Below are positions 2,678-34,620 of a stretch of 34,620 nt of DNA, piece after piece. The translations under genes were made by a program, and so were the position numbers. Positions within the stretch are counted from its first letter, which is position 1; the number at the start of each line of letters is the position of its first letter. The notes beneath the pieces were generated by a model, which ran no database searches, was not told the DNA's origin, and saw only the letters and a list, made by a program, of their open reading frames with translations. This DNA is from Candidatus Falkowbacteria bacterium RIFOXYA2_FULL_38_12. GTDB lineage: Bacteria > Patescibacteriota > Patescibacteriia > XYB2-FULL-38-15. The DNA lies in contig MFGA01000020.1 of the NCBI GenBank assembly GCA_001778095.1, positions 35,426 through 70,045 of the forward strand, read 5' to 3'.

Positions 2678-2687
2678 CCAAAAGAAT

Positions 2688-3716
2688 ATGAAAAAAGACA
2701 ATAAAAAACTAACTATCCGCAATTCCACCGCAGAATTTCTTATTTTCACCTCTCAAGCAGGCGAAGAAGGCATTGAAGTTCGTGTAGAAGATGAAAATAT
2801 ATGGCTAACCCAAAAACTGATTGCTAAGCTTTTTGATGTAAATATTCCGAATATAAATGAGCACTTGAAGCATATTTTTGAAAATGGAGAATTGGATGAA
2901 AATTCAGTTATTCGGAATTTCCGAATAACTGCTGTTGATGGAAAACAGTATCAAGCGAAACATTATAACTTAGAGACAATTATCGCCATCGGTTTTCGTG
3001 TTAATTCAGAGAAAGCAACAAATTTTCGCGTATGGGCAAATAAAGTTTTGAAAGATTTTGCTATTCACGGATATGTGTTGGATGATGTCAGGCTTAAAAA
3101 TGGGGCATATTTGAGCAAGCAATATTTTAAAGATTTGATTCTTGAAATTCGCGATATTAGAGAGAGTGAGCGAAATTTTTATCAGCAAATTACCGATATT
3201 TACGCGACTGCGCTTGATTATAATCTTAATTCGCCTACTACGAAAGGTTTTTTTGCCAATGTTCAAAATAAGCTACATTTTGCTACGCACGGGCGCACAG
3301 CAGCGGAATTGATAACAGATCGCGCGAGTCATAAAAAATATTACATGGGGCTGACCTCTTGGAAAAAATCTCCGAATGGAAAAATTTTAAAATCCGATGT
3401 TGTGATTGCCAAAAATTATTTGAATGAAAAAGAAATAAAATTTTTAAACCGCATCGTAACTATGTATCTTGACTATGCGGAAAATCAGGCAGAAAAATGT
3501 ATCCCGATGACAATGGCGGATTGGTCGGGAAAACTAAATGCTTTTTTGAAATTCAATAATGAGAAAATTCTTGACAATGTCGGCAAAATAACGACAGAGA
3601 TGGCGAAAGCTTTTGCCGAAAGTGAGTTTGAAAAATATCGCCCGATTCAAGACAAGCTTTTTAAATCTGACTTTGATCGTGAAATAAAGAAGTTTTTAAA
3701 ATATCATAAAGAATAA
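2688..3716 (+). CDS. rhuM: RhuM-family protein
   Basis: The 342-aa protein matches the RhuM family as I know it. The N-terminal part (about 35-145) has the signature IWLTQKLIAKLFDV, a winged-helix-like region, followed by GELDENSV, dGKQYQAKHYNLETIIAIG, FRVNSEKATNFRVWA and GYVLDD. The C-terminal part (about 190-342) is helical, with HGRTAAELI. RhuM was named from a Salmonella pathogenicity island, but its biochemical role is not established, and the virulence label should not be carried over here. Homologues often sit inside type I restriction loci, as here between hsdR (10-bp gap) and hsdM::hsdS (2-bp gap). The spacing implies one transcript, so a role linked to the restriction complex is a fair inference. 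Confidence 0.85.
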   Translation: MKKDNKKLTIRNSTAEFLIFTSQAGEEGIEVRVEDENIWLTQKLIAKLFDVNIPNINEHLKHIFENGELDENSVIRNFRITAVDGKQYQAKHYNLETIIAIGFRVNSEKATNFRVWANKVLKDFAIHGYVLDDVRLKNGAYLSKQYFKDLILEIRDIRESERNFYQQITDIYATALDYNLNSPTTKGFFANVQNKLHFATHGRTAAELITDRASHKKYYMGLTSWKKSPNGKILKSDVVIAKNYLNEKEIKFLNRIVTMYLDYAENQAEKCIPMTMADWSGKLNAFLKFNNEKILDNVGKITTEMAKAFAESEFEKYRPIQDKLFKSDFDREIKKFLKYHKE

Positions 3717-3718
3717 TT

Positions 3719-6175
3719 GTGCTTGATCAAACTACAAAACGAAAACTTGACTCTGCTCGCAATATTCTTGTTGGAAATGTTACTAATCCAATTTCACAGG
3801 TAGATCAAATAACCAACGCCTTGATTTATAAGTTTATGGATGATATGGATCAGGAAAATTTAGAAGTTGATTTAAAGCCTCAATTTTTTGTTGATGAATA
3901 TAAACAATATTCATGGCGTAAATTAATGGATAAAAAATTATCCGGGCAAGAGAGATTCAATCTTTATGAAGAAGCTACAAAAAAATTAACTTATGCCAAA
4001 CATATCCCATCACTTTTTAGAACAATTTTTGAAAATGCTCGCTTGCCGTATAATGATCCACGCGTCTTAACTCTCTTTTTAAAAGAGATAGACGAATTTT
4101 CTTATAGTCATAGCGAGGAGCTTGGCAATGCTTTTGAATACTTACTCTCCATTCTCGGTTCGCAAGGAGATGCGGGAATGTTTAGAACGCCACGGCACAT
4201 TATTGATTTTATAGTTGATATCGTTGATCCGAAGAAAAACGAAACAATTCTTGACCCTGCTTGCGGAACGGCTGGATTTTTGATTTCTGCTTATAAACAT
4301 ATTGTTAAAAATAATGATGGCAAGGATAATGAAACTGGCAAACCTACTAAAAAAGAAACACTGCTTACGCCCGATGAAAAATTACACCTGATGAATAATC
4401 TTGCGGGCTATGACATTTCGCCAGATATGGTGAAGTTGTCTTTGGTAAATATGTATTTACACGGTTTTCAAAATCCGCAAATTCATAAATACGATACGCT
4501 TTCAAGCGAGAAGCGTTGGGATGAAACCTTTGATGTGATTCTCGCTAATCCGCCGTTTATGTCGCCGAAAGGCGGGATTGTTCCTCACAAAAGATTTTCT
4601 ATCCAAGCTAATCGCGCGGAAGTTTTATTCGTTGATTATATTGTTGAGCACTTAACGATCAAAGGGCGGGCTGGAATCATCGTGCCAGAGGGTGTAATTT
4701 TTAAATCTGATGGAGCATGCAAAGCGCTTCGTAAAAAATTAGTAGAAGACGGACTTTTTACAGTAGTAAGTTTGCCAGCCGGAATTTTTCAGCCATACAG
4801 CGGAGTAAAAACCAGTATTTTGTTTTTTGATAATCAACTGGCAAAGAGATCTCAAGATATTTTATTTATAAAAATTGAAAATGACGGCTTTGATCTCGGT
4901 GCGCAAAGGCGGCCGATTGAGAAAAATGATTTGCCGAAAGCTATAGACCGCATAAGAATATGGAAAAATGTTTTGAATGATATTGATAAAAAGGAAAAAT
5001 TAAAAATTGTTGGCAAACAGGAATCAGTTAATGCTATTTGGGTTGATAAAGAAAAAATATCTGAAAGTGGAGATTATAATTTAACTGGCGAGCGATATCA
5101 GGAAGTTGAGGTTTATAAAAAACAGAAGTGGGAAATGGTGGAGTTGGGGGAAGTTTTAGAATATGAACAGCCAACAAAATATATTGTTAAATCAGTTAAT
5201 TATGATGATAGTTATAAAACCCCTGTTTTAACCGCAGGTAAGACTTTTATATTAGGATATACAAACGAAGAGGACGGTATATTTTCCGCAAAGAATTTAC
5301 CAGTAATTATTTTTGATGATTTTACAACGGCCATCAAATTTGTTGATTTTCCATTTAAAGTAAAATCATCGGCGATGAAAATTTTACGTGCAGATAAAAC
5401 AAAAGCAGATGCGCGATTTTTGTTTCAAATAATGAAGACAATAAAATTTAGACACGATGACCATAAACGGTATTGGATATCAGAATTTTCAAAAATCAAA
5501 ATCCCACTTCCACCCCTTGAAGTTCAAAAAGAAATTGTTGAGCAAATTGAGGTCAAACAAAGTGCCATAGATCACGCCAAGGCGATCATCCAAAATCTAG
5601 AGAGAGAGAGACGCTATTTTGGTCAATCACTTAGAAAATTAGAAGGCGTTAAAATAGTGGAGTTGGGAGAAGTTGCTGAAGTCATTGCTGGACAGTCGCC
5701 AGAAGGAAAATATTACAACGAAACAGGCGAAGGAATGCCATTTTATCAAGGTAAAACAGAATTTTCAGAATTGTATATTGGGAAACCAAAAGTATGGACA
5801 ACAAAAATAACAAAAATTGCAGAGAGAGACGATATTTTAATGTCTGTCCGTGCGCCTGTTGGTCCAGTTAATATTGCAACAGAAAAAGTTTGTATTGGTC
5901 GAGGTCTTGCTTCAATACGGGCAAATAAAGTAGATCCGATGTTCTTATTTAACTTTCTAAAATCAATTGATAATAAAATTAAAGGCAATGGCGGTGCGGT
6001 GTTTGATTCAATAAATAAAAAGCAGATTGAAGAATTAAAAATCCCGCTTCCGTCTTTGGAAATTCAGAAAAAACTTGTCGCCGAGGCAGAAAAAGAACAG
6101 CAAATAATCAACGCAAACAAGCAATTGATTGAAATCTACGAGCAAAAAATTTCTGATGTTTTAAGTGAGATATAG
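3719..6175 (+). CDS. hsdM-hsdS: Fused type I methylase-specificity protein (HsdM::HsdS)
   Basis: The 818-aa product joins two subunits that are normally separate. Residues 1 to about 460 form an HsdM N6-adenine methylase: a helical N-terminal bundle, the AdoMet motif LDPACGTAGFL at 178-188 and catalytic NPPF at 277-280. From about 470 an HsdS-like half follows with two target-recognition domains. TRD1 starts at WEMVELGEV (about 470) and ends at IPLPPLEVQKEIVEQI, before a helical spacer with NLERERRYF. TRD2 starts at VELGEVAEVIAGQSP (about 645) and ends at IPLPSLEIQKKLV. The first codon is GTG at 3719, 2 bp after the rhuM stop. The reading frame is continuous, with no frameshift at the junction. 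As two TRDs are present, one chain could specify a bipartite site, and the usual M2S1 stoichiometry would have to change. Confidence 0.93.
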   Translation: MLDQTTKRKLDSARNILVGNVTNPISQVDQITNALIYKFMDDMDQENLEVDLKPQFFVDEYKQYSWRKLMDKKLSGQERFNLYEEATKKLTYAKHIPSLFRTIFENARLPYNDPRVLTLFLKEIDEFSYSHSEELGNAFEYLLSILGSQGDAGMFRTPRHIIDFIVDIVDPKKNETILDPACGTAGFLISAYKHIVKNNDGKDNETGKPTKKETLLTPDEKLHLMNNLAGYDISPDMVKLSLVNMYLHGFQNPQIHKYDTLSSEKRWDETFDVILANPPFMSPKGGIVPHKRFSIQANRAEVLFVDYIVEHLTIKGRAGIIVPEGVIFKSDGACKALRKKLVEDGLFTVVSLPAGIFQPYSGVKTSILFFDNQLAKRSQDILFIKIENDGFDLGAQRRPIEKNDLPKAIDRIRIWKNVLNDIDKKEKLKIVGKQESVNAIWVDKEKISESGDYNLTGERYQEVEVYKKQKWEMVELGEVLEYEQPTKYIVKSVNYDDSYKTPVLTAGKTFILGYTNEEDGIFSAKNLPVIIFDDFTTAIKFVDFPFKVKSSAMKILRADKTKADARFLFQIMKTIKFRHDDHKRYWISEFSKIKIPLPPLEVQKEIVEQIEVKQSAIDHAKAIIQNLERERRYFGQSLRKLEGVKIVELGEVAEVIAGQSPEGKYYNETGEGMPFYQGKTEFSELYIGKPKVWTTKITKIAERDDILMSVRAPVGPVNIATEKVCIGRGLASIRANKVDPMFLFNFLKSIDNKIKGNGGAVFDSINKKQIEELKIPLPSLEIQKKLVAEAEKEQQIINANKQLIEIYEQKISDVLSEI

Positions 6176-6235
6176 CCCAAAAAAGTCTAAAATACGCTAT
6201 TTTTGTCATTTATCCACAAAATTTAGTATAAACAC

Positions 6236-6264
6236 TTGCAATATTATTAAATATCTGTTAAAAT
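6236..6264 (+). promoter_or_regulatory. Sigma70-type promoter for the AbiL-like pair
   Basis: TTGCAA at 6236-6241 and TAAAAT at 6259-6264 are separated by exactly 17 bp. They lie in the only sizeable gap (128 bp) of the defence island. A Shine-Dalgarno-like AAAGG lies at 6288-6292, 11 nt before the ATG at 6304. The pair therefore probably has its own transcription unit, separate from the restriction genes. Confidence 0.65.
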
Positions 6265-6303
6265 AGCAGTAGTCGAATAATTATTTTAAAGGTTTATAAA
6301 AAT

Positions 6304-7512
6304 ATGATTCACTCATTTACCTGCAAAAATTTTTACTCCTTTGGCGAAGAAACCACGCTCAATTTTGGGGTAAACAATAATGCGCCTGAAAATAACGGTT
6401 ATTTTACTGCCGTCTCGGGTAATCGTCTTTCAAAAGTGGAAACAGTCATCGGTCAGAATGCTTCGGGTAAAACAAATCTGCTCAAAATTTTGCCTTTTTT
6501 GAAATGGCTAATTATTGATTCATTTAATGCAAAGCCAGAAGATCCGATTGTTGTCCAGTCGTTTGCCTTTGGCGAAGCAAAAAGTGAACCGACAAATTTA
6601 TCGGTGGTTTTTGAAATTGACGGAAAAGTTTATGCCTATGATTTTATTATTACTAAAGAAAAGATTCTCAATGAAGAATTGAAATTGACCAGTTTTGCGA
6701 AAGAAAAAAAATCAACCAAAAAAATTTTTTCTCGCGTATGGAATGAAAAAGAAAATCGTTATGACTTTGATGGAGAAAATTTTGAATTGTCTAAAGGATT
6801 TGAAAATCTTTTACGCACTAATGCAAGCGTAATTGGTACCGCCGCCCGCCTTAATCATGCTGAAAGTCGGGTTATTGCAAAATACTGGGGGCAAATTGAA
6901 ACCAATGTTGTTGAAGCTGGCTGGGTTGGAGATCATTTGTTGCCAAACTCAATCGCTCAATTAGGCGAAGCATTTGATTTTTTTAGTGAAAACAGTGCTC
7001 TTAAGGCGGAAGCTGAAAAATTATTGTGTCGTTTCGATCTGGGTTTAAGTGGATTTGAGATAAAAAAAGAAAAAAAAGAAAATGGTTTTTTTCTGAATGT
7101 GCGAGCAGCGCACTTGTTTAATGGACAGAAACAATATTTGCCTGTGCAATATGAGTCTTCTGGCACAAAGCAATTGTTTGTGCTTCTAAAAAGCATTCTT
7201 GTTGCGCTTGAAAAAGGAGGTATTGCGGTCGTTGATGAATTTGATGTCAATCTTCACCCTGAAATGGTGATTGCTTTGTATAATTTATTTGTTCAGCCCG
7301 AGACAAATCCCAAAAATGCTCAATTGTTTATGAGTACTCATAGTCATATTTTGCTCAGCAAGCTTGATAAATATCAAATTGTTTTGGTTGAAAAAAATGA
7401 AAATGGCGTAAGTGAGGCATGGCGATTGGATGAAATGTCTGATGTGCGCTCTGATGAAAATTATTATTCAAAATATCTCGCCGGTGCGTATGGAGCCGTT
7501 CCTAAAATTTAA
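6304..7512 (+). CDS. AAA/ABC-type ATPase of an AbiL (RloA/AbiLi-like) defence pair
   Basis: The 402-aa protein is a single-chain SMC/OLD-like ATPase. It opens with the typical FTCKNFYSFGE strand. Walker A is GQNASGKT at 50-57, and Walker B is VVDEFD with D311 and E312, followed by LHPEM (D-loop region). An ABC-like signature lies before it (YESSGTKQLF), and the H-loop STHSHILLS follows. This arrangement is shared by RloA, AbiLi and the AriA subunit of PARIS. The downstream RloB/AbiLii-like gene 11 bp away supports a two-gene AbiL-type abortive-infection module: the ATPase would sense infection and release or activate the partner. That mechanism is inferred from related systems. Confidence 0.85.
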   Translation: MIHSFTCKNFYSFGEETTLNFGVNNNAPENNGYFTAVSGNRLSKVETVIGQNASGKTNLLKILPFLKWLIIDSFNAKPEDPIVVQSFAFGEAKSEPTNLSVVFEIDGKVYAYDFIITKEKILNEELKLTSFAKEKKSTKKIFSRVWNEKENRYDFDGENFELSKGFENLLRTNASVIGTAARLNHAESRVIAKYWGQIETNVVEAGWVGDHLLPNSIAQLGEAFDFFSENSALKAEAEKLLCRFDLGLSGFEIKKEKKENGFFLNVRAAHLFNGQKQYLPVQYESSGTKQLFVLLKSILVALEKGGIAVVDEFDVNLHPEMVIALYNLFVQPETNPKNAQLFMSTHSHILLSKLDKYQIVLVEKNENGVSEAWRLDEMSDVRSDENYYSKYLAGAYGAVPKI

Positions 7513-7523
7513 TTGTCAAAAAT

Positions 7524-8063
7524 ATGTCAAGAACGAATCCATATAAGAAAAAACGTCGAAGTGCCAAGCGAACGCTATTGATGTATGGCGAAGGATTGGG
7601 CGAAGAAATGTTTCTAAGACACTTGCGATCGCTTTATGCTCATAATAGTGGCGTATCTGTAACAATCAGAAATGGAAAAGGGGGGAATCCTAAAAGTGTT
7701 GTTATAAACGCCGCAAACGAACCAGGTGATTTCGAAAAGCGGATTGTAATTTTAGATAATGATAAAGATAAAAAAGAAATGGATCAGGCTCGAGTTGAGG
7801 CTAAAAAGAAAAGCGTGGCGATACTTGAAAATTCGCCTTGTTTGGAATCAACATTGCTTTCCATTCTTCGTACTGAACAAAATTTTTCTACTAAAAAATC
7901 AGCATGGTGCAAAAATGAATTCGAATTAAATTATATGGACAAAAAGAAACGAATAGAATTAGAAGAATACAAGAAAGTTTTTTCAAAACAAATTTTAGAT
8001 GGTCAGAAAGATAAAATTTTAGAATTGAAAGCACTTATAAATTTAATGGAAGGAAAATTATAG
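7524..8063 (+). CDS. RloB/AbiLii-like protein, probable effector of the defence pair
   Basis: The 179-aa protein carries the three blocks I associate with the RloB/AbiLii family: an acidic motif MYGEGLGEE (20-28, usual form EGxTE), ILDNDKD (77-82) and NSPCLESTLL (103-112, usual form SNPCFExWLL). The arrangement of acidic residues resembles a Toprim-like nuclease core, as in AriB of PARIS. A basic N-terminus (KKKRRSAKR) could contact nucleic acid. It follows the ATPase gene by 11 bp. The family is known from plasmid abortive infection (AbiL) and from genes linked to Campylobacter type I restriction loci (rlo). The phenylalanine and tryptophan usual in the third block are replaced, so this is a divergent member. 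Confidence 0.72.
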   Translation: MSRTNPYKKKRRSAKRTLLMYGEGLGEEMFLRHLRSLYAHNSGVSVTIRNGKGGNPKSVVINAANEPGDFEKRIVILDNDKDKKEMDQARVEAKKKSVAILENSPCLESTLLSILRTEQNFSTKKSAWCKNEFELNYMDKKKRIELEEYKKVFSKQILDGQKDKILELKALINLMEGKL

Positions 8064-8150: not shown

Positions 8151-9974
8151 ATGAATAAAATACGAATTTTTAAAATAAGCTTTATTTTTTTGGTTGTTTT
8201 AATTTTAGGGGTCGGTTTTTTTGTATTAAAAAATAAAAGTGTAGTGCCATCTGACAATAGTTTATCCGACAGATGTAATCAAAAAGATTTACCGTACCTT
8301 AATCCCGGTTTATCGGTTGAAGAAAGGGTGGACGATTTAATAAGCAGGATGAGTGATTGGGAAAAGATAGGTCAAATGGTTTTGATTGAAAAAAATAGCA
8401 TTCACGACCTTAATGATATTAAGCGATATAATTTGGGAGCATTATTGAGTGGTGGTGGGGCAGGACCAAAAGAAGATAATCCATCAGCATGGCTTGCTAT
8501 GGTAAATAATTTTCAAGATGTAGCCGAAAAAACTTGTTTTAAAATTCCCATTTTATACGGAATTGATGCCATTCATGGTAATGCCAATATTTTGGGAGCT
8601 ACAGTTTTTCCCCATTTTATCGGACTGGGCGCGAGTCGTGATCCCGATTTGGTTAAACGTGTCGCTGTTGCAACTGCCGACGAGATGTCCGCTGTAGGGA
8701 TTTACTGGAGTTTTTCTCCCAACCTTGATGTGGTTCAAGATATTCGTTGGGGAAAAACCTACGAAACATTCGGATCAGACACTGAAAATGTAGCGCAACT
8801 GGGACTGGCATATCTAGAGGGGACTCAATATTCTTCAAATGGTTATTTAAATGTAGTCGCAACTTTAAAGCACTTTATTGGCGGTGGTTCTATGGAATAT
8901 GGAACTTCGCGCAATAAAAATTTTAAAATAGAAGAAGGAAATATTACAATGGATGAAAAAAGTTTTCGACAAGTTCACTTGACGCCTTTTAAGCAAGCTG
9001 TGGCAGACGGAGCGCAAGTCGTAATGGTTAGCACTGCTACCTGGAATGGAAAAATGAATACCTCAAATCAATATCTTCTAACGGATGTATTAAAAAAAGA
9101 GCTTGGTTTCTCTGGTTTTGTGGTTTCGGACTGGTATGGTGTATATCAGGTTTCTAATACGAGATATGATTCTCTGGTAAACTCCATTAACGCCGGCGTA
9201 GATATGGTAATGACCCCATTTGAATATAAAGATTTTATGGGTAATATGCAAAAAGCGTTGGCAAATAATGATATAACCAAAGAACGTCTAAATGATGCAG
9301 TAAGGCGAATTTTAACTGTAAAATTTAAAGCTGGATTATTTGATCGTCCCCGAGCCACGCCAGAAGGACTATCTATTATAGGTAACAATCAACATCGTCA
9401 GCTGGCCAGGGAGGCAGTTCGTAAATCTCAAGTAATTTTAAAAAATGAAAAATCTTTGTTGCCACTGTCTACCTCGTTGGATAAAATCATAGTCGCCGGA
9501 TCATCGGCAGATAATCTGGGTCGCCAAGCGGGAGGATGGACAACGGAGTGGCAAGGTATGGATGGCAATAACGGCATCGTGGGCACTACAATACTTGAAG
9601 CGATAAAAAATACCGTCTCTAAGAATACAGAGGTTGAATATAATAAACAAGGAGATTTTTCTTTGGGAAACGATCTTGCAGATGTTGGGATTGTTGTTGT
9701 TGGAGAAAAACCTTATGCTGAAGGTTGGGGAGATAACGCTAATCCAAGTCTAAGTTCTGAAGATTTGGCGGTAATAGCAAAGACGAAAACAAAAAGTAAA
9801 AAAATCGTGGCTCTAATAATTTCCGGTAGGCCACTTGATATTTCCCCGTATTCTAAAGATTGGGATAGTATAGTCGCTTCGTGGTTGCCAGGATCTGAAG
9901 GCGAGGGCGTTACAGATGTGCTGTTCGGCCTTTATCCGTTTTCCGGTGTTTTGCCGGTGGAGTGGAACTATTGA
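8151..9974 (+). CDS. Glycoside hydrolase family 3, membrane-anchored beta-glucosidase-like
   Basis: The 607-aa protein begins with a membrane anchor or uncleaved signal (about residues 5-28), so the enzyme should act outside the membrane. The GH3 (beta/alpha)8 barrel runs from about 60 to 400 with YGIDAIHG, KHFIGGG and the nucleophile D327 in VVSDWYG. The C-terminal alpha/beta sandwich (about 420-607) ends with SWLPGSEGEGVTDVLFG and LPVEWNY. It most resembles exo-1,3/1,4-beta-glucanases of the BglX/ExoP type. The protein stops right after the W of the LPxxW motif. Many relatives carry another 20-30 residues ending in a PYGYGL-like motif, so the tail looks trimmed. It probably releases glucose from external glucans. 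A GH1 glucosidase is encoded 4 kb downstream. Confidence 0.9.
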   Translation: MNKIRIFKISFIFLVVLILGVGFFVLKNKSVVPSDNSLSDRCNQKDLPYLNPGLSVEERVDDLISRMSDWEKIGQMVLIEKNSIHDLNDIKRYNLGALLSGGGAGPKEDNPSAWLAMVNNFQDVAEKTCFKIPILYGIDAIHGNANILGATVFPHFIGLGASRDPDLVKRVAVATADEMSAVGIYWSFSPNLDVVQDIRWGKTYETFGSDTENVAQLGLAYLEGTQYSSNGYLNVVATLKHFIGGGSMEYGTSRNKNFKIEEGNITMDEKSFRQVHLTPFKQAVADGAQVVMVSTATWNGKMNTSNQYLLTDVLKKELGFSGFVVSDWYGVYQVSNTRYDSLVNSINAGVDMVMTPFEYKDFMGNMQKALANNDITKERLNDAVRRILTVKFKAGLFDRPRATPEGLSIIGNNQHRQLAREAVRKSQVILKNEKSLLPLSTSLDKIIVAGSSADNLGRQAGGWTTEWQGMDGNNGIVGTTILEAIKNTVSKNTEVEYNKQGDFSLGNDLADVGIVVVGEKPYAEGWGDNANPSLSSEDLAVIAKTKTKSKKIVALIISGRPLDISPYSKDWDSIVASWLPGSEGEGVTDVLFGLYPFSGVLPVEWNY

Positions 9975-14282: not shown

Positions 14283-15503
14283 ATGCAAGAACGTGTGAGT
14301 TATTTTTTTCCAAAAAATTTTTATTGGGGTTGTGCTAGTTCTTCCCACCAGATTGAAGGCAATACTTATAATGATTGGAGCGAGTGGGAAAAATCAGAAG
14401 AGCGTGTTGGCGAACTGAAACGACAGAATAAAGATCCTAGAGAATATATTTCCGGCTCGGCCGCTAATTCTTTTATTTTGAATAATCAAGACATTGCTTG
14501 TCTCAAGGAACTAAATGTCAATGCTTATCGTTTTTCTATTGAGTGGTCGAGAATTGAGCCGGAACAGGGTAGTTTTGATTATGAAGCACTGAAAAATTAC
14601 CAAAATTTTATTTTGAAACTTAAGGCAAATAATATTGAGCCATTTGTAACTTTATGGCATTGGCCGATTCCCATTTGGGTAAGAGACTTGGGTGGCTGGC
14701 AATCAAAAAAGATTTTGCCGTTTTTTGATCGCTACGTAAAAATAGTTGCTGAATTTTTAGATAAAAATGTAGATTATTGGGTGACTTTGAATGAACCGAC
14801 TGTTTATGCAAGCAATAGTTATTTGACAGGGCAATGGCCACCGCAAAAAAAGAGCTTATTTTTATCTTTGAAAGTTATAAAAAATTTAATTAGAGCTCAT
14901 AAGTCCGCTTACGCAGTTTTAAAAAATATAGATACAAATAATCAAATAGGCATCGCTAGCCACAATATTAATTTTGATCCCGCAGGCAAAAAAGTTTTCA
15001 ATAAAGTTGTAGCCGGATTGGCGAATTATTTTTGGAATGAATATTTTTTGAATAAAATTTCCGGGGAGCAAGATTTTGTTGGGTTAAATTATTATTTTCA
15101 TAATTTAATAAACTACGGATTTGGTAAAAATGAAAATAAGTTAATCTCGGATATGGGATGGGAGCTATATCCCGAAGGCGTCAAGCATGTTATAAAAGGA
15201 TTAGATAAATATAAAAAACCTATTTATATTTTGGAGCACGGCTTAGCCGACAAAGACGATAAGCATCGTGCGTGGTATTTGAAAGAAAGCTTAAAAAATA
15301 TCCACGAGGCGATCGCTTCCGGGAGCGATGTGCGCGATTATTTTCACTGGTCGCTTTTGGATAATTTTGAATGGGCTGACGGATTCTTCCCGCGTTTTGG
15401 TTTATATGAGGTAAATTATAAAACATTCGAACGAACTCCTCGGTCGGCCGTAAAAACTTATAGTGAAATTTGTCGAGAAAATGGTTTTAAAAACGATAAT
15501 TAA
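14283..15503 (+). CDS. Glycoside hydrolase family 1 beta-glucosidase/beta-glycosidase
   Basis: The 406-aa cytosolic enzyme starts with the family's FPKNFYWGCASSSHQIEGN. It has RFSIEWSRIEP, the acid/base glutamate E171 in TLNEP and the nucleophile E318 in ILEHG. It ends with HWSLLDNFEWADGF and RFGLYEVNY. Most GH1 enzymes have ENG at the nucleophile; here the Asn is His. At 406 residues it is shorter than the usual 440-480, with a compact stretch around 240-270. No signal peptide is present, so it should act on sugars or glycosides taken up, perhaps products of the exported GH3 enzyme. Confidence 0.92.
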   Translation: MQERVSYFFPKNFYWGCASSSHQIEGNTYNDWSEWEKSEERVGELKRQNKDPREYISGSAANSFILNNQDIACLKELNVNAYRFSIEWSRIEPEQGSFDYEALKNYQNFILKLKANNIEPFVTLWHWPIPIWVRDLGGWQSKKILPFFDRYVKIVAEFLDKNVDYWVTLNEPTVYASNSYLTGQWPPQKKSLFLSLKVIKNLIRAHKSAYAVLKNIDTNNQIGIASHNINFDPAGKKVFNKVVAGLANYFWNEYFLNKISGEQDFVGLNYYFHNLINYGFGKNENKLISDMGWELYPEGVKHVIKGLDKYKKPIYILEHGLADKDDKHRAWYLKESLKNIHEAIASGSDVRDYFHWSLLDNFEWADGFFPRFGLYEVNYKTFERTPRSAVKTYSEICRENGFKNDN

Positions 15504-19427: not shown

Positions 19428-20729
19428 ATGGCAAAAAAGAAAAAAAATATTCCGGTTAAAAGCAAGAAGCCGGAGAAAAAAGGAAAAAAGGAAACCAAGG
19501 GGGGTAAAGCAAAAAAGAAGGTTCCTCTAAAGTCCAGTGGAATAAAAAAAGACGCAATTAAAAAGACGGCAAAGAAAAAAATAGTGGCCGTCAAAAAAGC
19601 TCCGATAAAAAAAGGAGTTGTTTTACCGTTGCCAAAAATTTTTCCTCCAAGCGATGAAGAAATGAAAAAGTTGATTGAAAAAGGAAGAACAAGAGGATTT
19701 TTAACTGATGGGGAAATTCTTTTTACTTTTTGCAATTTGGAAAATTATCTTAAAAAATACGACGAGTTTCTTGATATGCTGGAAGACGCGGGCGTGTGCG
19801 TGGCTGAAGTTAAACAGGGGATACTGGGCAGAGAAGACGATAGAAGAAAAATTTTGTCGGATATTGGCGTTAGCAAAGAGAAAAAGAGGCTTGATCTGGG
19901 CGATATTTCCACAGACTCTATTCAGATGTATCTTCGCGAAATCGGAAAAGTGCCGTTATTGACGACCGAAGAAGAAATGTCCTTAGCTAGAAGAAAAGAT
20001 ATTGGAGACGCGGCCGCCTCGCAAAGATTGATGGTCGCCAATTTACGTTTGGTGGTTTCCATTGCTAAAAAATTTGTCGGAAAAAATCTTTCTTTGGCTG
20101 ACTTGATTCAAGAGGGGAATATCGGTTTGATGCGCGCAGTGGAAAAATTTGATGCTAGAAAAGGTTATAAATTTTCCACATACGCGACTTGGTGGATTAG
20201 GCAAGCGGTGACGAGAGCTTTGGCCGATCAATCTAGAACTATCAGAATTCCGGTGCATATGGTTGAGGCGATTAATCGTTATCAACAGGTTGCTAGACAA
20301 TTAATTCAAGACTTGGGTCGTGAACCATTACCGGAAGAGATTGCCGCGGAAATGGGCGAAGACGTGGAAAAAGTAAAAGATTTTATTCAATATTCACAAG
20401 ATACCGTTTCCTTGGATACTTCCGTTGGTGATGACGATGAAGACAGCGTCTTAGAAGATTTTATAGAAGATTTCAAAAATATTTCTCCGGATCGCGCGGC
20501 CGCGCTTCAGCTTTTGCGCGAATACGTGAAAGACGCTATAAAAGATTTATTGCCTCGCGAACAGAAAATTTTAGAGATGCGTTTTGGTCTTGAAGACGGA
20601 GTCTCTCATACTCTTGAAGAAGTGGGGGAGGAGTTTGGCGTTACAAGAGAAAGAATCAGGCAGATTGAACAAAAAGCGTTGGAAAAGATACAAGGATTCA
20701 AGGGTATTGAAAAATTACGGGATTATTGA
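19428..20729 (+). CDS. rpoD: Primary RNA polymerase sigma factor (sigma70, RpoD)
   Basis: The 433-aa protein has an unusual N-terminal tail (about 1-70) made almost entirely of Lys, Ala, Pro and Val. Region 1.1-like helices follow, then region 1.2 ([16 protein letters not shown], about 163), region 2 ([18 protein letters not shown], then [17 protein letters not shown] near 250), region 3 and region 4.2 ([19 protein letters not shown], about 395-415). Region 2.4 and 4.2 residues match the housekeeping sigma that reads TTGACA/TATAAT, in line with the promoters seen in this window. The lysine-rich tail replaces the usual acidic region 1.1 start. Confidence 0.96.
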
Positions 20730-20764
20730 TAAAATTAGAAAGCTAAATATTTTCCAGGTCGAGT

Positions 20765-20836
20765 TCCGAGGTAGCTCAGTGGCAGAGCAGTTGGCTGTTA
20801 ACCAATTGGTCGTGGGTTCGAATCCCACCCTCGGAG
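20765..20836 (+). tRNA. tRNA-Asn (GUU)
   Basis: A full cloverleaf can be drawn. Acceptor TCCGAGG (20765-20771) pairs with CCTCGGA (20829-20835), and the discriminator base is G. The D stem is GCTC/GAGC. The anticodon stem GTTGG/CCAAT (one G-T pair) encloses loop CTGTTAA with anticodon GTT. The T arm is GTGGG-TTCGAAT-CCCAC. CCA is not encoded. It lies 35 bp after rpoD and before a terminator, so it may be co-transcribed with the sigma factor gene. Confidence 0.95.
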
Positions 20837-20860
20837 CTTGGTTTGGAAACTATTGAATTG

Positions 20861-20886
20861 AAACACCCTATCAAAGGGTGTTTTTA
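20861..20886 (+). terminator. Rho-independent terminator after tRNA-Asn
   Basis: AAACACCCT (20861-20869) and AGGGTGTTT (20875-20883) form a 9-bp perfect stem with loop ATCAA, followed by T residues. It ends the dnaG-rpoD-tRNA stretch. Confidence 0.85.
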
Positions 20887-20961
20887 GTTTACTTTTAAGC
20901 TTGAATATGGGAAAATTAAAAAATGCAATATAGGATAATTTATTATTAAATTTATTTGAGT

Positions 20962-21180
20962 ATGTCAAAACATAAAATGACATTAAAATACTTGGCAACA
21001 AATATTTCTATCGTTGTTGGTTTGGTATTGATTTGGCGCGGAGTTTGGTACGTATTGGACGGATTGGATAAATTGATTTTCGGTGGTAGCCATATCTGGA
21101 CTGCTCTTGGCGGTATTATAGTTGGTCTTCTTATTTTATATTTGCCGGACAAGGATTTAAAGGAAATTGAAAAATTATAA
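20962..21180 (+). CDS. Small two-helix membrane protein
   Basis: The ATG at 20962 gives 72 residues (MSKHKMTLKYLATN at the start). An upstream in-frame TTG at 20956 adds only two residues and is less likely. Two hydrophobic helices (about 12-32 with VVGLVLIWRGVWYVL and about 45-65 with ALGGIIVGLLILYL) flank a short glycine-containing loop (IFGGSH). The C-terminus is charged (LPDKDLKEIEKL). No family is recognised. It ends 4 bp before the PerM-type permease gene, so the two are likely translated together. Confidence 0.7.
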   Translation: MSKHKMTLKYLATNISIVVGLVLIWRGVWYVLDGLDKLIFGGSHIWTALGGIIVGLLILYLPDKDLKEIEKL

Positions 21181-21184
21181 TTAT

Positions 21185-22225
21185 ATGAATCAAAATCAAC
21201 ACTCAGATTATTTTTTATTTTTTTGTCTTGTAGCTTCAATTATTATTGTATATTTTATTATTCAACCGTTTTTAACCCCGCTCATTTTAGCGGCCGTGTT
21301 TGCTTTTCTCTTTCAACCCATCTATGGAAAATTTTTATTTGTAACACGAGAACGTCCAAGTCTTTCAGCTTTTATTACCACCATTATTGCCATTATTCTA
21401 GTTATTTTGCCAATTGCGTTTGTTGGAACTCTTATATTAAAAGAATCAACAGGACTTTATCAAACATTTATGGGGGGAGACAGGAACGATCTTGTAACAG
21501 CCATTGAGGAAATCCTAAATCAAGCGCGCGTTATTCTACCAATTCCGGAGACATTTGAATTGGATATCGGTCAATATGTAAAACAGTGGTTAGAGATATT
21601 GGTTCAACATCTTGGTGGTATCTTTTCAAGTTTTGCTAAAATATTTTTGAGTGCGTTTGTTTTTCTTACCGCTTTTTATTTTTTATTGAAAGATGGGCGG
21701 AAACTGAAAGATTATCTTGTTGATTTGAGCCCTCTTAATGATAAAGATGATGATTTAATCGTTAGGAGTCTTCAATCCGCGGTGTCTGCGACCGTAAAGG
21801 GCAACCTTACTATCGGGCTTATTCAGGGAATACTCACCGGCATCGGATTTACGATTTTTGGTGTTCCGGATCCTGTTTTGTGGGGAAGTGTGGCCGCGAT
21901 AACAGCCTTAATACCCGGAATAGGCACGGCGCTGGTCATTACCCCCGCAATCATCTTTTTATTTCTTACTGGTAATACTTTTGATGGGATGGGGCTTCTT
22001 GTGTGGGGGTTCACTGCCGTCGGTCTCGTTGATAATTTTTTAGGTCCGAAACTTGTAGGGCGCGGCATGAAATTGCATCCGTTGGCCGTATTTTTAGCAG
22101 TACTTGGTGGCTTAGCATTTTTTGGTCCCTTGGGATTCTTGCTCGGGCCCCTCTTTATGAGCGTGTGCTTAGCCTTAGTTGATATTTATTTTTCCCTAAA
22201 AATAAGAAATAATAAAATTATATAA
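21185..22225 (+). CDS. AI-2E/PerM (UPF0118) family permease
   Basis: The ATG at 21185 is preferred over a TTG at 21167 and gives 346 residues. It has an N-terminal pair of helices, a soluble middle part (about 90-150), and a C-terminal block of helices with FYFLLKDG, GLIQGILTGIGFTIFGVPDP, AAITALIPGIGTALV and FGPLGFLLGPL. This is the standard layout of the family. Members include exporters of AI-2 and Na+/H+ antiporters, so the substrate is open. The adjacent 72-aa membrane protein may be a partner. Confidence 0.9.
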   Translation: MNQNQHSDYFLFFCLVASIIIVYFIIQPFLTPLILAAVFAFLFQPIYGKFLFVTRERPSLSAFITTIIAIILVILPIAFVGTLILKESTGLYQTFMGGDRNDLVTAIEEILNQARVILPIPETFELDIGQYVKQWLEILVQHLGGIFSSFAKIFLSAFVFLTAFYFLLKDGRKLKDYLVDLSPLNDKDDDLIVRSLQSAVSATVKGNLTIGLIQGILTGIGFTIFGVPDPVLWGSVAAITALIPGIGTALVITPAIIFLFLTGNTFDGMGLLVWGFTAVGLVDNFLGPKLVGRGMKLHPLAVFLAVLGGLAFFGPLGFLLGPLFMSVCLALVDIYFSLKIRNNKII

Positions 22226-22247
22226 GCGCGCATTGCCTATAAATTTT

Positions 22248-32459: not shown

Positions 32460-32954
32460 ATGACAATTTTTGACTTTGTTCTTTTACTTATTGTCGGCGG
32501 ATTCGTAATGTCGGGATTATGGTTTGGATTGATTCATTCTTTCGGAGCGTTTCTGGGGACAATCGCCGGCGCGTTTTTTGCGGCAAGATGGTACGAGCCG
32601 GTTGCTTCTCGATTCAGTTCTTTGTTTGGCGATCATCAAAATTTGGCCCGCATTGTTTGTTTTCTGGTTTTATTTATAATAATTGATCGCTTGGTTGGCT
32701 TGGTTTTTTGGATTATCAATAAACTTTTTTCAGTTTTGCCGACAATTCCATTTTTTAAAGTCACCAATCGCCTGATCGGAGCAATTTTTGGATTTTTAGA
32801 AGGTGTTTTGGTTCTTGGTCTTACTCTATTTTTTGTAGGGAAGTATCCATTGGGAGAATGGTTTTCCGGATTAATTTCAGATTCCAAAGTCGCTGATTAT
32901 TTAATCAGAGCGGGTAAGATATTTTTGCCTATTTTACCGGAAATATTTAAATAG
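32460..32954 (+). CDS. CvpA family membrane protein
   Basis: The 164-aa protein has four hydrophobic segments, starting FDFVLLLIVGGFVMSGLWFG. It shows the CvpA-family glycine-rich second helix (GAFLGTIAGAFFAARWYEPV) and a late GAIFGFLEGVLVLG. CvpA relatives are linked to colicin V export and envelope stress, but the molecular role is unclear. Its TAG stop (32952-32954) is also the first three bases of the second MITE-like element, so the insertion may have set the present C-terminus. Confidence 0.82.
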   Translation: MTIFDFVLLLIVGGFVMSGLWFGLIHSFGAFLGTIAGAFFAARWYEPVASRFSSLFGDHQNLARIVCFLVLFIIIDRLVGLVFWIINKLFSVLPTIPFFKVTNRLIGAIFGFLEGVLVLGLTLFFVGKYPLGEWFSGLISDSKVADYLIRAGKIFLPILPEIFK

Positions 32955-33119: not shown

Positions 33120-33950
33120 ATGTTGTTTGATACTCATGCCCATCTGAATTTTGCCACATATAAAGATGATGTAGGTGAAGTGATAAAGCGCACTCTAAAA
33201 GAGGGCGTTTTTGTGGTGAATGTTGGTTCACAATATACAACCAGCAAAAGAGCGGTAGAGATAGCTCAAAATTATGAAAATGGTGTTTGGGCAGCGGTGG
33301 GTTTGCATCCGATTCATTTAGTAAAGAGAAAAATTAATTTAGACGATTCGGAACTTCTAGAAAGCGAATTTCAAACGGCTGGTGAAGTTTTTGATTATCA
33401 AAAATATCTAGAACTGGCTAAGGATCCAAAGGTAGTAGTGATAGGTGAAATGGGCTTAGACTATCATCACTTTGAGGAGGGGGACAATATTCCAGAATTA
33501 AAAAAACAACAGAAAGATACTTTTTTAGAAGGCATAAAATTGGCGAATGATGTTGGAAAGCCACTTATGATTCATTGTTGGGATGCATATGATGATCTTT
33601 TGGAAATACTCAAAAGTAATTTAGTGGAAAAAAGAGGAGTCGTTCATAGTTTTATTGGTGGCTACAAAACCGCGCGTAAGTTTATTGAGTTGGGTTACAA
33701 AATAGGTATGAATGGCGTAATGACATATACAACAGATTTTAATCGTTTAATAAAAGAAGTTGCGCTTGAAGATATTGTTTTTGAAACGGACTGCCCATAT
33801 TTGACTCCAGTTCCACACAAAGGCGAACGCAACGAGCCTATTTATGTAAAATATGTTGCTGAAAAAGTTGCGGAAGTTAAAGGTATCAGTTGCGAAGAAG
33901 TGGAAAAACAGACAACGGAAAATGCTTTGAAATTTTTTAATATAAAATAA
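33120..33950 (+). CDS. tatD: TatD family metal-dependent DNase/hydrolase
   Basis: The 276-aa TIM-barrel hydrolase has the metal motifs of the family: FDTHAHLNF (H6, H8), VGLHPIH, IGEMGLDYHH with the bridging Glu, MIHCWD, VVHSFIGG and FETDCPYLTPVPHKGERNEP. TatD proteins act as 3'-5' nucleases in DNA repair or quality control. The ATG follows the MITE-like element by 7 bp with no visible ribosome site. Its transcription signals must therefore lie in the element, or it reads through from cvpA. Confidence 0.92.
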   Translation: MLFDTHAHLNFATYKDDVGEVIKRTLKEGVFVVNVGSQYTTSKRAVEIAQNYENGVWAAVGLHPIHLVKRKINLDDSELLESEFQTAGEVFDYQKYLELAKDPKVVVIGEMGLDYHHFEEGDNIPELKKQQKDTFLEGIKLANDVGKPLMIHCWDAYDDLLEILKSNLVEKRGVVHSFIGGYKTARKFIELGYKIGMNGVMTYTTDFNRLIKEVALEDIVFETDCPYLTPVPHKGERNEPIYVKYVAEKVAEVKGISCEEVEKQTTENALKFFNIK

Positions 33951-33965
33951 TTTCAGATAAAAAAT

Positions 33966-34012
33966 AATCCCTCTTGCGTCAGCGCTTTATGATGCGTCGG
34001 CAAGGGGGATTT
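33966..34012. terminator. Bidirectional terminator between tatD and the minus-strand gene
   Basis: AATCCCTCTTGC and GCAAGGGGGATT pair over 12 positions with one mismatch. T-rich stretches follow on both strands (TTTTCTGTCTCCTTTTTTT on plus, ATTATTTTTT on minus). It can end both the tatD gene and the convergent gene at 34027. Confidence 0.75.
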
Positions 34013-34026
34013 TCTGTCTCCTTTTT

Positions 34027-34620
34027 TTAGAAGATTAAAGGGGGAGTTGTCTCGGTGGCGGGCGACGCCGAGTCGTCAGTGGGTAGCTCGGGGGTAGGTG
34101 GCGGTGGATCGGTGGCGAGCGGAGCCGGCTCTGGCGCTGGTGGTGGGTCGGGGGCTGGTTCCGGTTCCGGAGCTGGCGCTACGGGTGGCTCCGGCGGTGG
34201 CGGTCTCGGGACGGAGAAATTGATGATTAGGCGGCCAAAGAACTCCGCCCAAACTTCTCCTCCTGCCTCGCGGAAGTGGACGGCGAGGGCAATGTGCCCC
34301 CATGGAGGGAATCCGAACAAGATGTTCGGTCCTCCGCCGTTACTTCCTCGTTCGCCGATGGGTCCCCAGCCCTCGGCCTCGCCTCCGATAGCAAGCCACC
34401 GAAGTGGCTGCCATTCGGCCTGGAAGAAATAGTACCAGCCTCCCGAAGGGAAACGGAACTCAACATCCCCCCATGCCCAGAAAGTCCGGGTGTGGATGTC
34501 GAGACGGAGGGAACCGATTCCCTCCTGTTTTCCCCAGTTAAAGCCGACGACTAGTTCCCCTCCAAACCAGGTCGCCGGTGCCCAATGAAGCCCCACGTAG
34601 GCGAGCGGGGCAAGCTCGCC
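34027..34620 (-). CDS. Partial GC-rich gene: beta-strand-rich domain with a Pro/Glu/Ala tail
   Basis: The frame is open to the window edge, giving 197 residues without a start. The GTG at 34594-34596 is only an internal possibility, because GELAPLAY precedes it in frame. Residues to about 130 alternate aromatic/hydrophobic and polar positions with many Trp and Gly (GGWYYFFQAEWQPLRWLAIG, FGFPPWGHIALAVHF), as in an outer-membrane-type beta-barrel or other strand-rich wall protein. A tail of about 60 residues follows, made of Pro, Glu, Ala and Asp (PPPAPEPAP). Codons are strongly GC-rich, unlike all other genes here. Foreign origin, contamination or a chimeric contig are possible. No family is recognised. 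Confidence 0.6.
   Translation of the reverse strand, partial: GELAPLAYVGLHWAPATWFGGELVVGFNWGKQEGIGSLRLDIHTRTFWAWGDVEFRFPSGGWYYFFQAEWQPLRWLAIGGEAEGWGPIGERGSNGGGPNILFGFPPWGHIALAVHFREAGGEVWAEFFGRLIINFSVPRPPPPEPPVAPAPEPEPAPDPPPAPEPAPLATDPPPPTPELPTDDSASPATETTPPLIF

What the first reader, a model, noticed from the sequence alone, without database searches (positions are those of the whole stretch)
34027..34620. Sharp GC jump at the right end with a barrel-like, proline-tailed gene
From about 34030 the sequence turns from AT-rich to clearly GC-rich, and the minus-strand gene uses G/C-ending codons. Its product looks like an aromatic-rich beta-strand protein with a Pro/Glu/Ala tail, unexpected in a CPR genome without an outer membrane. 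Either it was recently acquired, or the contig is chimeric.
Basis: partly seen in the sequence, partly recalled or inferred. Interest (0 to 1): 0.6.

Follow-up and report, generated by a model that had tools for sequence, protein, structure and literature searches.

The report
Porin-like barrel in outer-membrane-less bacterium
The GC-rich stretch is one real gene for an exported, porin-shaped barrel protein of a kind that normally sits in an outer membrane, yet it is found in tiny dependent bacteria that appear to have no outer membrane and no known machinery to insert it, so it may act on the cells they live on.

Summary
In detail: GC rises from about 36% to 63% at 34030 for one minus-strand gene, which runs off the window into an 80-N gap (241 codons in all). 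It is not a chimera: the genes on both sides are neighbours in a related genome that lacks the gene, and GC falls back right after the start codon. The gene belongs to an unnamed family of exported proteins of about 190-230 residues in 33 sampled Patescibacteria genomes, usually GC-richer than its neighbours. AlphaFold2 predicts a confident porin-like beta-barrel (closest solved structures VhGalP, NanC, KdgM; Z about 15). Strand alternation and weak Pfam outer-membrane-barrel hits agree. Yet 0 of 30 genomes tested carries Omp85/BamA, LptD or secretin. In 12 of 35 loci a TrmB-type regulator lies divergently upstream; here a two-component regulator takes that place. The Pro/Glu/Ala tail is seen only in this member. 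Best explanation: a stand-alone gene for an exported porin-like barrel acting outside the cell's own membrane, possibly in a host's outer membrane. Fold, family and missing machinery are well supported; place of action and function are inferred. Strand count (11 in the model) and closure are unresolved.

The parts
34027..34620 (-). 3' part (197 codons and stop) of the GC-rich gene; the 5' part lies outside the window, beyond an 80-N gap (whole frame C20:69455-70177 plus stop, 241 codons)
34216..34620 (-). predicted porin-like beta-barrel part: 9 strands, against 11 in the model of a complete homologue; the first two strands would fall in the gap
   Evidence: AlphaFold2 pLDDT 89.6; KdgM 4fqe Z 13.5, rmsd 2.6, 130 aligned
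34030..34215 (-). Pro/Glu/Ala-rich C-terminal tail, 62 codons, without predicted secondary structure; not seen in the other family members examined
33966..34011 (.). hairpin with T-runs on both strands; probable intrinsic terminator shared by tatD and this gene
   Evidence: read from sequence; fold of the minus strand z -3.5, 0 of 200 shuffles as stable
33120..33950 (+). tatD, left boundary of the insertion; neighbour of the response regulator in G002
   Evidence: Pfam TatD_DNase; synteny
32460..32954 (+). cvpA-like gene, part of the conserved metG-cvpA-tatD-regulator order
   Evidence: Pfam Colicin_V

Best explanation
The feature is a stand-alone, moron-like gene (own ribosome site, own terminator, deviant composition, absent from the same place in a relative) for a Sec-exported, porin-like transmembrane beta-barrel. 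It works outside the producing cell's only membrane. Because the producer seems to have neither an outer membrane nor an Omp85 machine, the barrel most likely folds into a foreign outer membrane, that of the Gram-negative cell on which the CPR bacterium lives, and makes it permeable to small solutes that the dependent cell needs. Expression is switched by an adjacent, divergently transcribed regulator: TrmB-type in a third of the loci examined, an OmpR-type two-component system (by position only) here. Shown by computation: one gene, the family, the predicted fold, the lack of BamA, LptD and secretin, the regulator association. Inferred: export (signal peptide by eye), membrane insertion, host outer membrane as the place, permeabilising function.
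For: Gene and family. Fold: L018 model pLDDT 92.9, pTM 0.86; VhGalP 8xua Z 15.4, rmsd 2.9, 169 aligned; NanC 15.1; KdgM 15.1. Window model: KdgM Z 13.5. Family-wide strand alternation 2.57 against 1.03 (sd 0.22) in shuffles, 0 of 1000 reach it. Pfam OMP_b-brl hits 5 of 28 members at E<=0.1; searched over 30 whole genomes it gives 7 matches in 6 genomes, four of them at family loci (G052, G132, G151, G202), one over the curated cut-off. Omp85, LptD, secretin: 0 of 30 genomes each, controls positive. TrmB divergently upstream in 12 of 35 loci, confirmed as PF01978 in the 7 scanned, against 5 of 325 other genes on eight such contigs and 0 of 836 genes elsewhere. Fast divergence, L028/L034 49% against rplJ 91%, fits a surface or host-facing protein.
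Against: No experiment, no known host, no coordinates of the model at hand. The model shows 11 strands while KdgM-type porins have 12 (recalled), so closure is unresolved; Foldseek alone gives weak E-values, its top rows (TOM40, VDAC) having TM-scores of 0.25-0.29. The window's own genome has no PF13505 match and the first two strands of its protein are missing in the gap. No TrmB gene was found on its contig (0 of 150), and its two-component system is also present in G002 without the barrel gene. A monoderm exporting a barrel into a foreign membrane would need the host's BAM or spontaneous folding, neither shown. Only 25 of 380 class genomes carry the family, so it is no general CPR need.
Confidence: 0.4

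Rival explanations
1. The barrel sits in the producer's own envelope: a non-canonical outer layer in which barrels are placed without Omp85, as is believed for mycobacterial outer-membrane proteins (recalled), here serving as a porin of that layer.
For: Kept in place within genus g134 next to rplJ-rplL; tied to local regulators; signal peptide and barrel fold fit any outer layer.
Against: 0 of 30 genomes with Omp85, LptD or secretin; not found in 355 of 380 class genomes, although an envelope porin should be common; Patescibacteria are described as probably lacking an outer membrane (PMC12102498, passages seen).
Confidence: 0.25
2. The barrel is a secreted or wall-held surface protein that is not a pore: an adhesin, ligand binder or phage decoy using a barrel scaffold; the Pro-rich tail of this member spans or anchors in the wall.
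For: Pro/Glu/Ala tail beyond the last strand; rapid divergence; Pro-rich stretches recur in other proteins of relatives (tail-only matches).
Against: Strong two-face alternation, and the best structural matches are membrane barrels; no other of the 35 members examined has such a tail.
Confidence: 0.2
3. Assembly chimera or contamination at the right end.
For: Sharp compositional jump and an N gap inside the gene.
Against: tatD and the regulator flank it on both sides and are neighbours in G002; both pieces across the gap are GC-rich and complementary parts of one protein; 22 of 23 family loci with assessable neighbours show the same GC3 excess; genome contamination is given as 0.18%.
Confidence: 0.03
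4. An ordinary recent transfer of a Gram-negative outer-membrane gene that is non-functional in its new host and on its way to being lost.
For: Patchy distribution, no copy in G001 and G002, composition foreign to the genome.
Against: Intact frames with ribosome sites in the family, divergent regulator kept across classes, place kept within a genus; no relative found in the viral, phage and plasmid collections.
Confidence: 0.1

Closest known systems
KdgM / NanC / VhGalP small monomeric porins (12-stranded; strand number recalled)
   Same: Size and predicted barrel over the full length: Z about 15 with 159-169 residues aligned at 2.8-3.1 A; Z 13.5 for the window part
   Different: 6-10% identity in the aligned part of the L018 model; no KdgM hit in the Pfam scans; 11 strands in the model; producers lack Omp85 and LptD; TrmB or two-component neighbours
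Pfam OMP_b-brl (PF13505) outer-membrane beta-barrel domain
   Same: 5 of 28 members match at E<=0.1, best 3.6e-4; one family locus over the cut-off in the whole-genome search
   Different: The window's genome has no match; nearly all matches are under the cut-off; genomes without an outer-membrane machine
Phage or prophage morons (stand-alone cargo genes with own promoter, terminator and composition; recalled)
   Same: Lone gene, own ribosome site and terminator, deviant GC, missing at the same place in G002
   Different: No prophage was seen around it; no match in viral contigs, phage or plasmid records

Membership tests
KdgM/NanC porin family | sequence match to a KdgM-type profile | tested here: not met
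   window protein no Pfam family at E<=1; 6 proteins at E<=5 without it; not among the 7 families matched by the 28 members at E<=0.1
KdgM/NanC porin family | barrel fold of the same size and order | tested here: met
   VhGalP 15.4, NanC 15.1, KdgM 15.1 for L018; KdgM 13.5 for the window part; predicted models only
KdgM/NanC porin family | twelve strands (recalled) | tested here: inconclusive
   11 strands in the L018 model, 9 in the truncated window model
KdgM/NanC porin family | channel activity for oligosaccharides | not testable with these tools
   needs purified protein
Gram-negative outer-membrane beta-barrel protein | cleaved Sec signal peptide | tested here: inconclusive
   read by eye in the members; in the window gene the start is seen but the cleavage site lies in the gap
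Gram-negative outer-membrane beta-barrel protein | amphipathic strands with one hydrophobic face | tested here: met
   2.57 against 1.03 sd 0.22 in 1000 column shuffles, none as high; strands taken from the L018 model
Gram-negative outer-membrane beta-barrel protein | last strand ends in an aromatic residue | tested here: met
   most members end in F or L; in the window gene the strand ends ...LIINF, followed by the tail
Gram-negative outer-membrane beta-barrel protein | producer has Omp85/BamA and an outer membrane | tested here: not met
   Omp85 0 of 30, LptD 0 of 30, secretin 0 of 30 genomes
horizontally acquired stand-alone gene (moron-like) | deviant composition, own terminator, empty site in a relative | tested here: met
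horizontally acquired stand-alone gene (moron-like) | identified donor or mobile element | tested here: not met
   no relative in the viral, phage or plasmid collections

The most novel reading that the evidence does not exclude
A family of porins made by bacteria without an outer membrane, exported to be built into the outer membrane of the host cell on which they live, so that the epibiont opens its host's barrier under control of a sugar-type (TrmB) or two-component sensor.
Probability: 0.3. Interest if true: 0.92.

Novelty: new variant of a known kind. Interest (0 to 1): 0.68.

Why it matters
Outer-membrane barrels are taken as a hallmark of diderm cells with an Omp85 machine. A regulated family of porin-like barrels in genomes without that machine either means that some CPR bacteria have an unrecognised outer layer, or that they export pores to their hosts. 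Both bear on how these dependent bacteria get nutrients, and both can be tested with one protein. I found no report of it in nine literature searches of the held library (listings only, apart from passages of PMC8871954 and PMC12102498).

Tried and rejected
Chimera: rejected by the flanking synteny in G002 and by homologues with the same composition. Named Pfam, NCBIfam, PDB-sequence or PHROG family: none fits; TIGR03519 (E 0.012) and OmpA_like (E 0.15) for L005 alone are far under their cut-offs. Seven of the loci (L006, L007, L009, L010, L012, L013, L015) match only with the Pro-rich tail or near it and were dropped as low complexity. L041, a 94-residue end-of-contig piece, was dropped. In one search, 23 of 26 loci were assessed: for three (L022, L039, L040) the script reported no fitting frame; the one locus without a GC3 excess, L025, is a fragment at a contig end. 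Viral, phage and plasmid origin: no match. Foldseek's top rows (TOM40, VDAC) have TM-scores of 0.25-0.29 and were not taken as relatives; the viral fold library gave generic porin matches. The promoter scan found one site, about what shuffles give; its terminator list does not hold the long hairpin, which was read by eye and folded. The literature searches gave nothing on such a family; the GC-rich-gene search returned unrelated papers.

Full report
1. What is there. The window is bases 35426-70045 of a 182,384-base contig (C20) of a 914-kb, 98.6% complete genome. GC is 0.31-0.45 up to 34000 and 0.626 in 34001-34500. The contig goes on beyond the window: first 80 N, then the rest of the same minus-strand frame, an ATG with AGGAGG in front, and AT-rich DNA again. 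The GC-rich piece is therefore one gene of 241 codons (gap included) with about 0.7 kb of high GC, between tatD (ending at 33950) and a divergent OmpR-type response regulator (Response_reg and Trans_reg_C) followed by a sensor kinase (named by reading its sequence). A hairpin at 33966-34011 with T-runs on both strands lies between tatD and the gene; the minus strand folds with z -3.5, and 0 of 200 shuffles are as stable. I cannot tell for certain whether the N run is a scaffold gap or a mask; homologues have about 55-66 residues before the GELAP motif and this gene 44 across the gap (my count), so it is probably a scaffold gap written too short.

2. It is not an assembly error. In G002, another genome of the same family, the order metG, a different GC-rich gene, cvpA, tatD, response regulator, kinase is kept (gene names by reading and by likeness to the window's genes), and tatD and the regulator are about 195 bp apart without the gene. 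Both flanks of the GC-rich piece thus belong together. G001, also of the family, has neither this gene nor a tatD match, so it says nothing about the site.

3. A family. A protein search of 144 relatives found two clear homologues (35% and 30% identity) and weaker ones; a profile of four found the family in 25 of 380 genomes of the class, and a profile of 28 in 9 of 379 genomes drawn from the phylum, four of them outside the class. together give 33 genomes. Named relatives are Patescibacteria MAGs and a Candidatus Buchananbacteria bin. Members have about 190-230 residues, a signal-peptide-like start, mostly a ribosome site and a hairpin with T-run behind the stop, and mostly end in an aromatic or leucine strand. 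Of the 35 members I read only the window's gene carries the long Pro/Glu/Ala tail.

4. Composition. On C20 the gene stands 5.2 sd above the mean of 142 ORFs in GC. In 22 of 23 family loci with assessable neighbours the gene's GC3 exceeds that of its neighbours; the mean over the 23 is +0.19 (Wilcoxon P 1e-5); gene and neighbour GC3 are not clearly correlated (r 0.24, P 0.28). Within genus g134 the gene keeps its place near rplJ-rplL while the proteins are only 29-54% identical, and it still shows an excess (0.03 to 0.43). So deviant composition is a lasting trait of the family, not only a sign of recent arrival. It is shared by other lone genes: three GC3 outliers of 150 ORFs on C20, and further ones in 400 kb each of G169 and G057 (mechanical ORFs, some may be the wrong frame).

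5. Fold. AlphaFold2 on the complete homologue L018 with 28 family rows gives pLDDT 92.9 and pTM 0.86, nearly all strand, 11 strands. The window's 197 residues give pLDDT 89.6, nine strands and a tail without secondary structure, whose last 30 residues have pLDDT of 61-66. VIA-align places L018 next to VhGalP (Z 15.4, rmsd 2.9, 169 aligned), NanC (15.1) and KdgM (15.1), all small outer-membrane porins, and the window part next to KdgM (Z 13.5). Foldseek alone is weaker: its best E-values, for TOM40, come with TM-scores of 0.28-0.29. Sequence evidence independent of the model: Pfam OMP_b-brl matches 5 of 28 members at E up to 0.1, and Porin_4 and Phenol_MetA_deg match 3 each. Searched over 30 whole genomes, OMP_b-brl gives 7 matches in 6 genomes, four of them at family loci (G052, G132, G151, G202), one over the cut-off; G000 has none. 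With strands taken from the model, the two faces differ in hydropathy by 2.57 against 1.03 (sd 0.22) in shuffles, 0 of 1000 reaching it. Recurrent charged residues (as in WGDVEF and GGEAEG of the window protein) fall on the polar face.

6. No outer-membrane machinery. Omp85, LptD and secretin: 0 of 30 barrel-carrying genomes each (30 of the 33 genomes with a member were given; 27 of the 30 are at least 90% complete and at most 5% contaminated), with matches in 7, 2 and 6 of 14 known control genomes. [quoted passage not shown]

7. Regulator. A profile of four TrmB-like neighbours finds such a gene divergently upstream in 12 of 35 family loci (11 genomes; two loci share contig G250:C8), at most three genes away by my reading, and in 0 of 836 genes of the C20, G169 and G057 stretches. 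The seven scanned are PF01978 TrmB. On eight contigs that hold family loci 16 of 336 genes are TrmB-like, 11 of them at family loci by my count, 5 of 325 elsewhere. Chance would give about 0.5 divergent TrmB genes within two genes upstream of 35 loci; even the inflated rate of 16 in 336 gives P 4e-8 (the loci are not fully independent, and at least one regulator lies three genes away). Several other TrmB genes there also face lone GC-rich genes. In the window's genome a two-component regulator takes this place, but it is also present in G002 without the barrel.

8. How it most likely works. Shown by computation: a real gene of a family, a confident porin-like model, no Omp85/LptD/secretin, a regulator association. 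Inferred: export through Sec, folding into a bilayer outside the cell. With no outer membrane of its own, the nearest such bilayer is that of a Gram-negative host; a porin placed there would let small solutes out to the epibiont. Rivals are an unknown outer layer of the producer, and a non-pore surface function. The tail could thread or hold the protein in the wall; nothing tests that.

9. Novelty. The fold is known; the family, its place in Omp85-less genomes and its regulator link were not found in print in nine searches of the held library, which lacks most subscription journals. I rate it a new variant of a known kind, interest 0.68.

Noticed in passing
G000 C20:162172-162972 (L051:2172-2972, minus) and C20:7252-7797 (L043): Two more lone GC-rich genes on the same contig: a secreted, lipoprotein-like D/G-rich protein with a PEGA domain (GC3 0.67) and an M23 peptidase-like protein (GC3 0.60).
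   Followed up: partly
L055:6331-7431 and L055:942-1712: G002 has other GC-rich genes (GC3 0.73, 0.64) in the same neighbourhood: one of 367 codons with no Pfam family between metG and cvpA, one beyond the sensor kinase.
   Followed up: partly
G169:C1:400001-800000 (L056-L075): Many lone GC3-outlier ORFs in a genome stretch of 36% GC, several with signal-peptide-like starts; lone GC-rich cargo genes look like a general trait of these genomes.
   Followed up: partly
L118-L119 (G140:C39:31306-33429) and L125 (G447:C3, about 20157-22246): A TrmB-like gene faces a GC-richer gene followed by a small swivelling-domain-like gene in two genomes, one of them outside the class; a second kind of TrmB-linked module.
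   Followed up: no
L032, L035, L037, L038, L042: In five loci of family f9 the barrel gene is preceded on the same strand by a related membrane protein of about 440 residues, possibly an operon partner.
   Followed up: no
window 167-8063: Type I restriction set (R subunit, RhuM-family gene, fused M-S subunit) followed by an AAA ATPase and a RloB-like gene (under Pfam's cut-off), a probable defence cluster.
   Followed up: no
window 8151-9974 and 14283-15503: A GH3 and a GH1 glycosidase gene in the same window.
   Followed up: no
window 1 and 34620 (C20:35409-35425 and 70046-70125): The window lies exactly between two N runs of its contig.
   Followed up: yes
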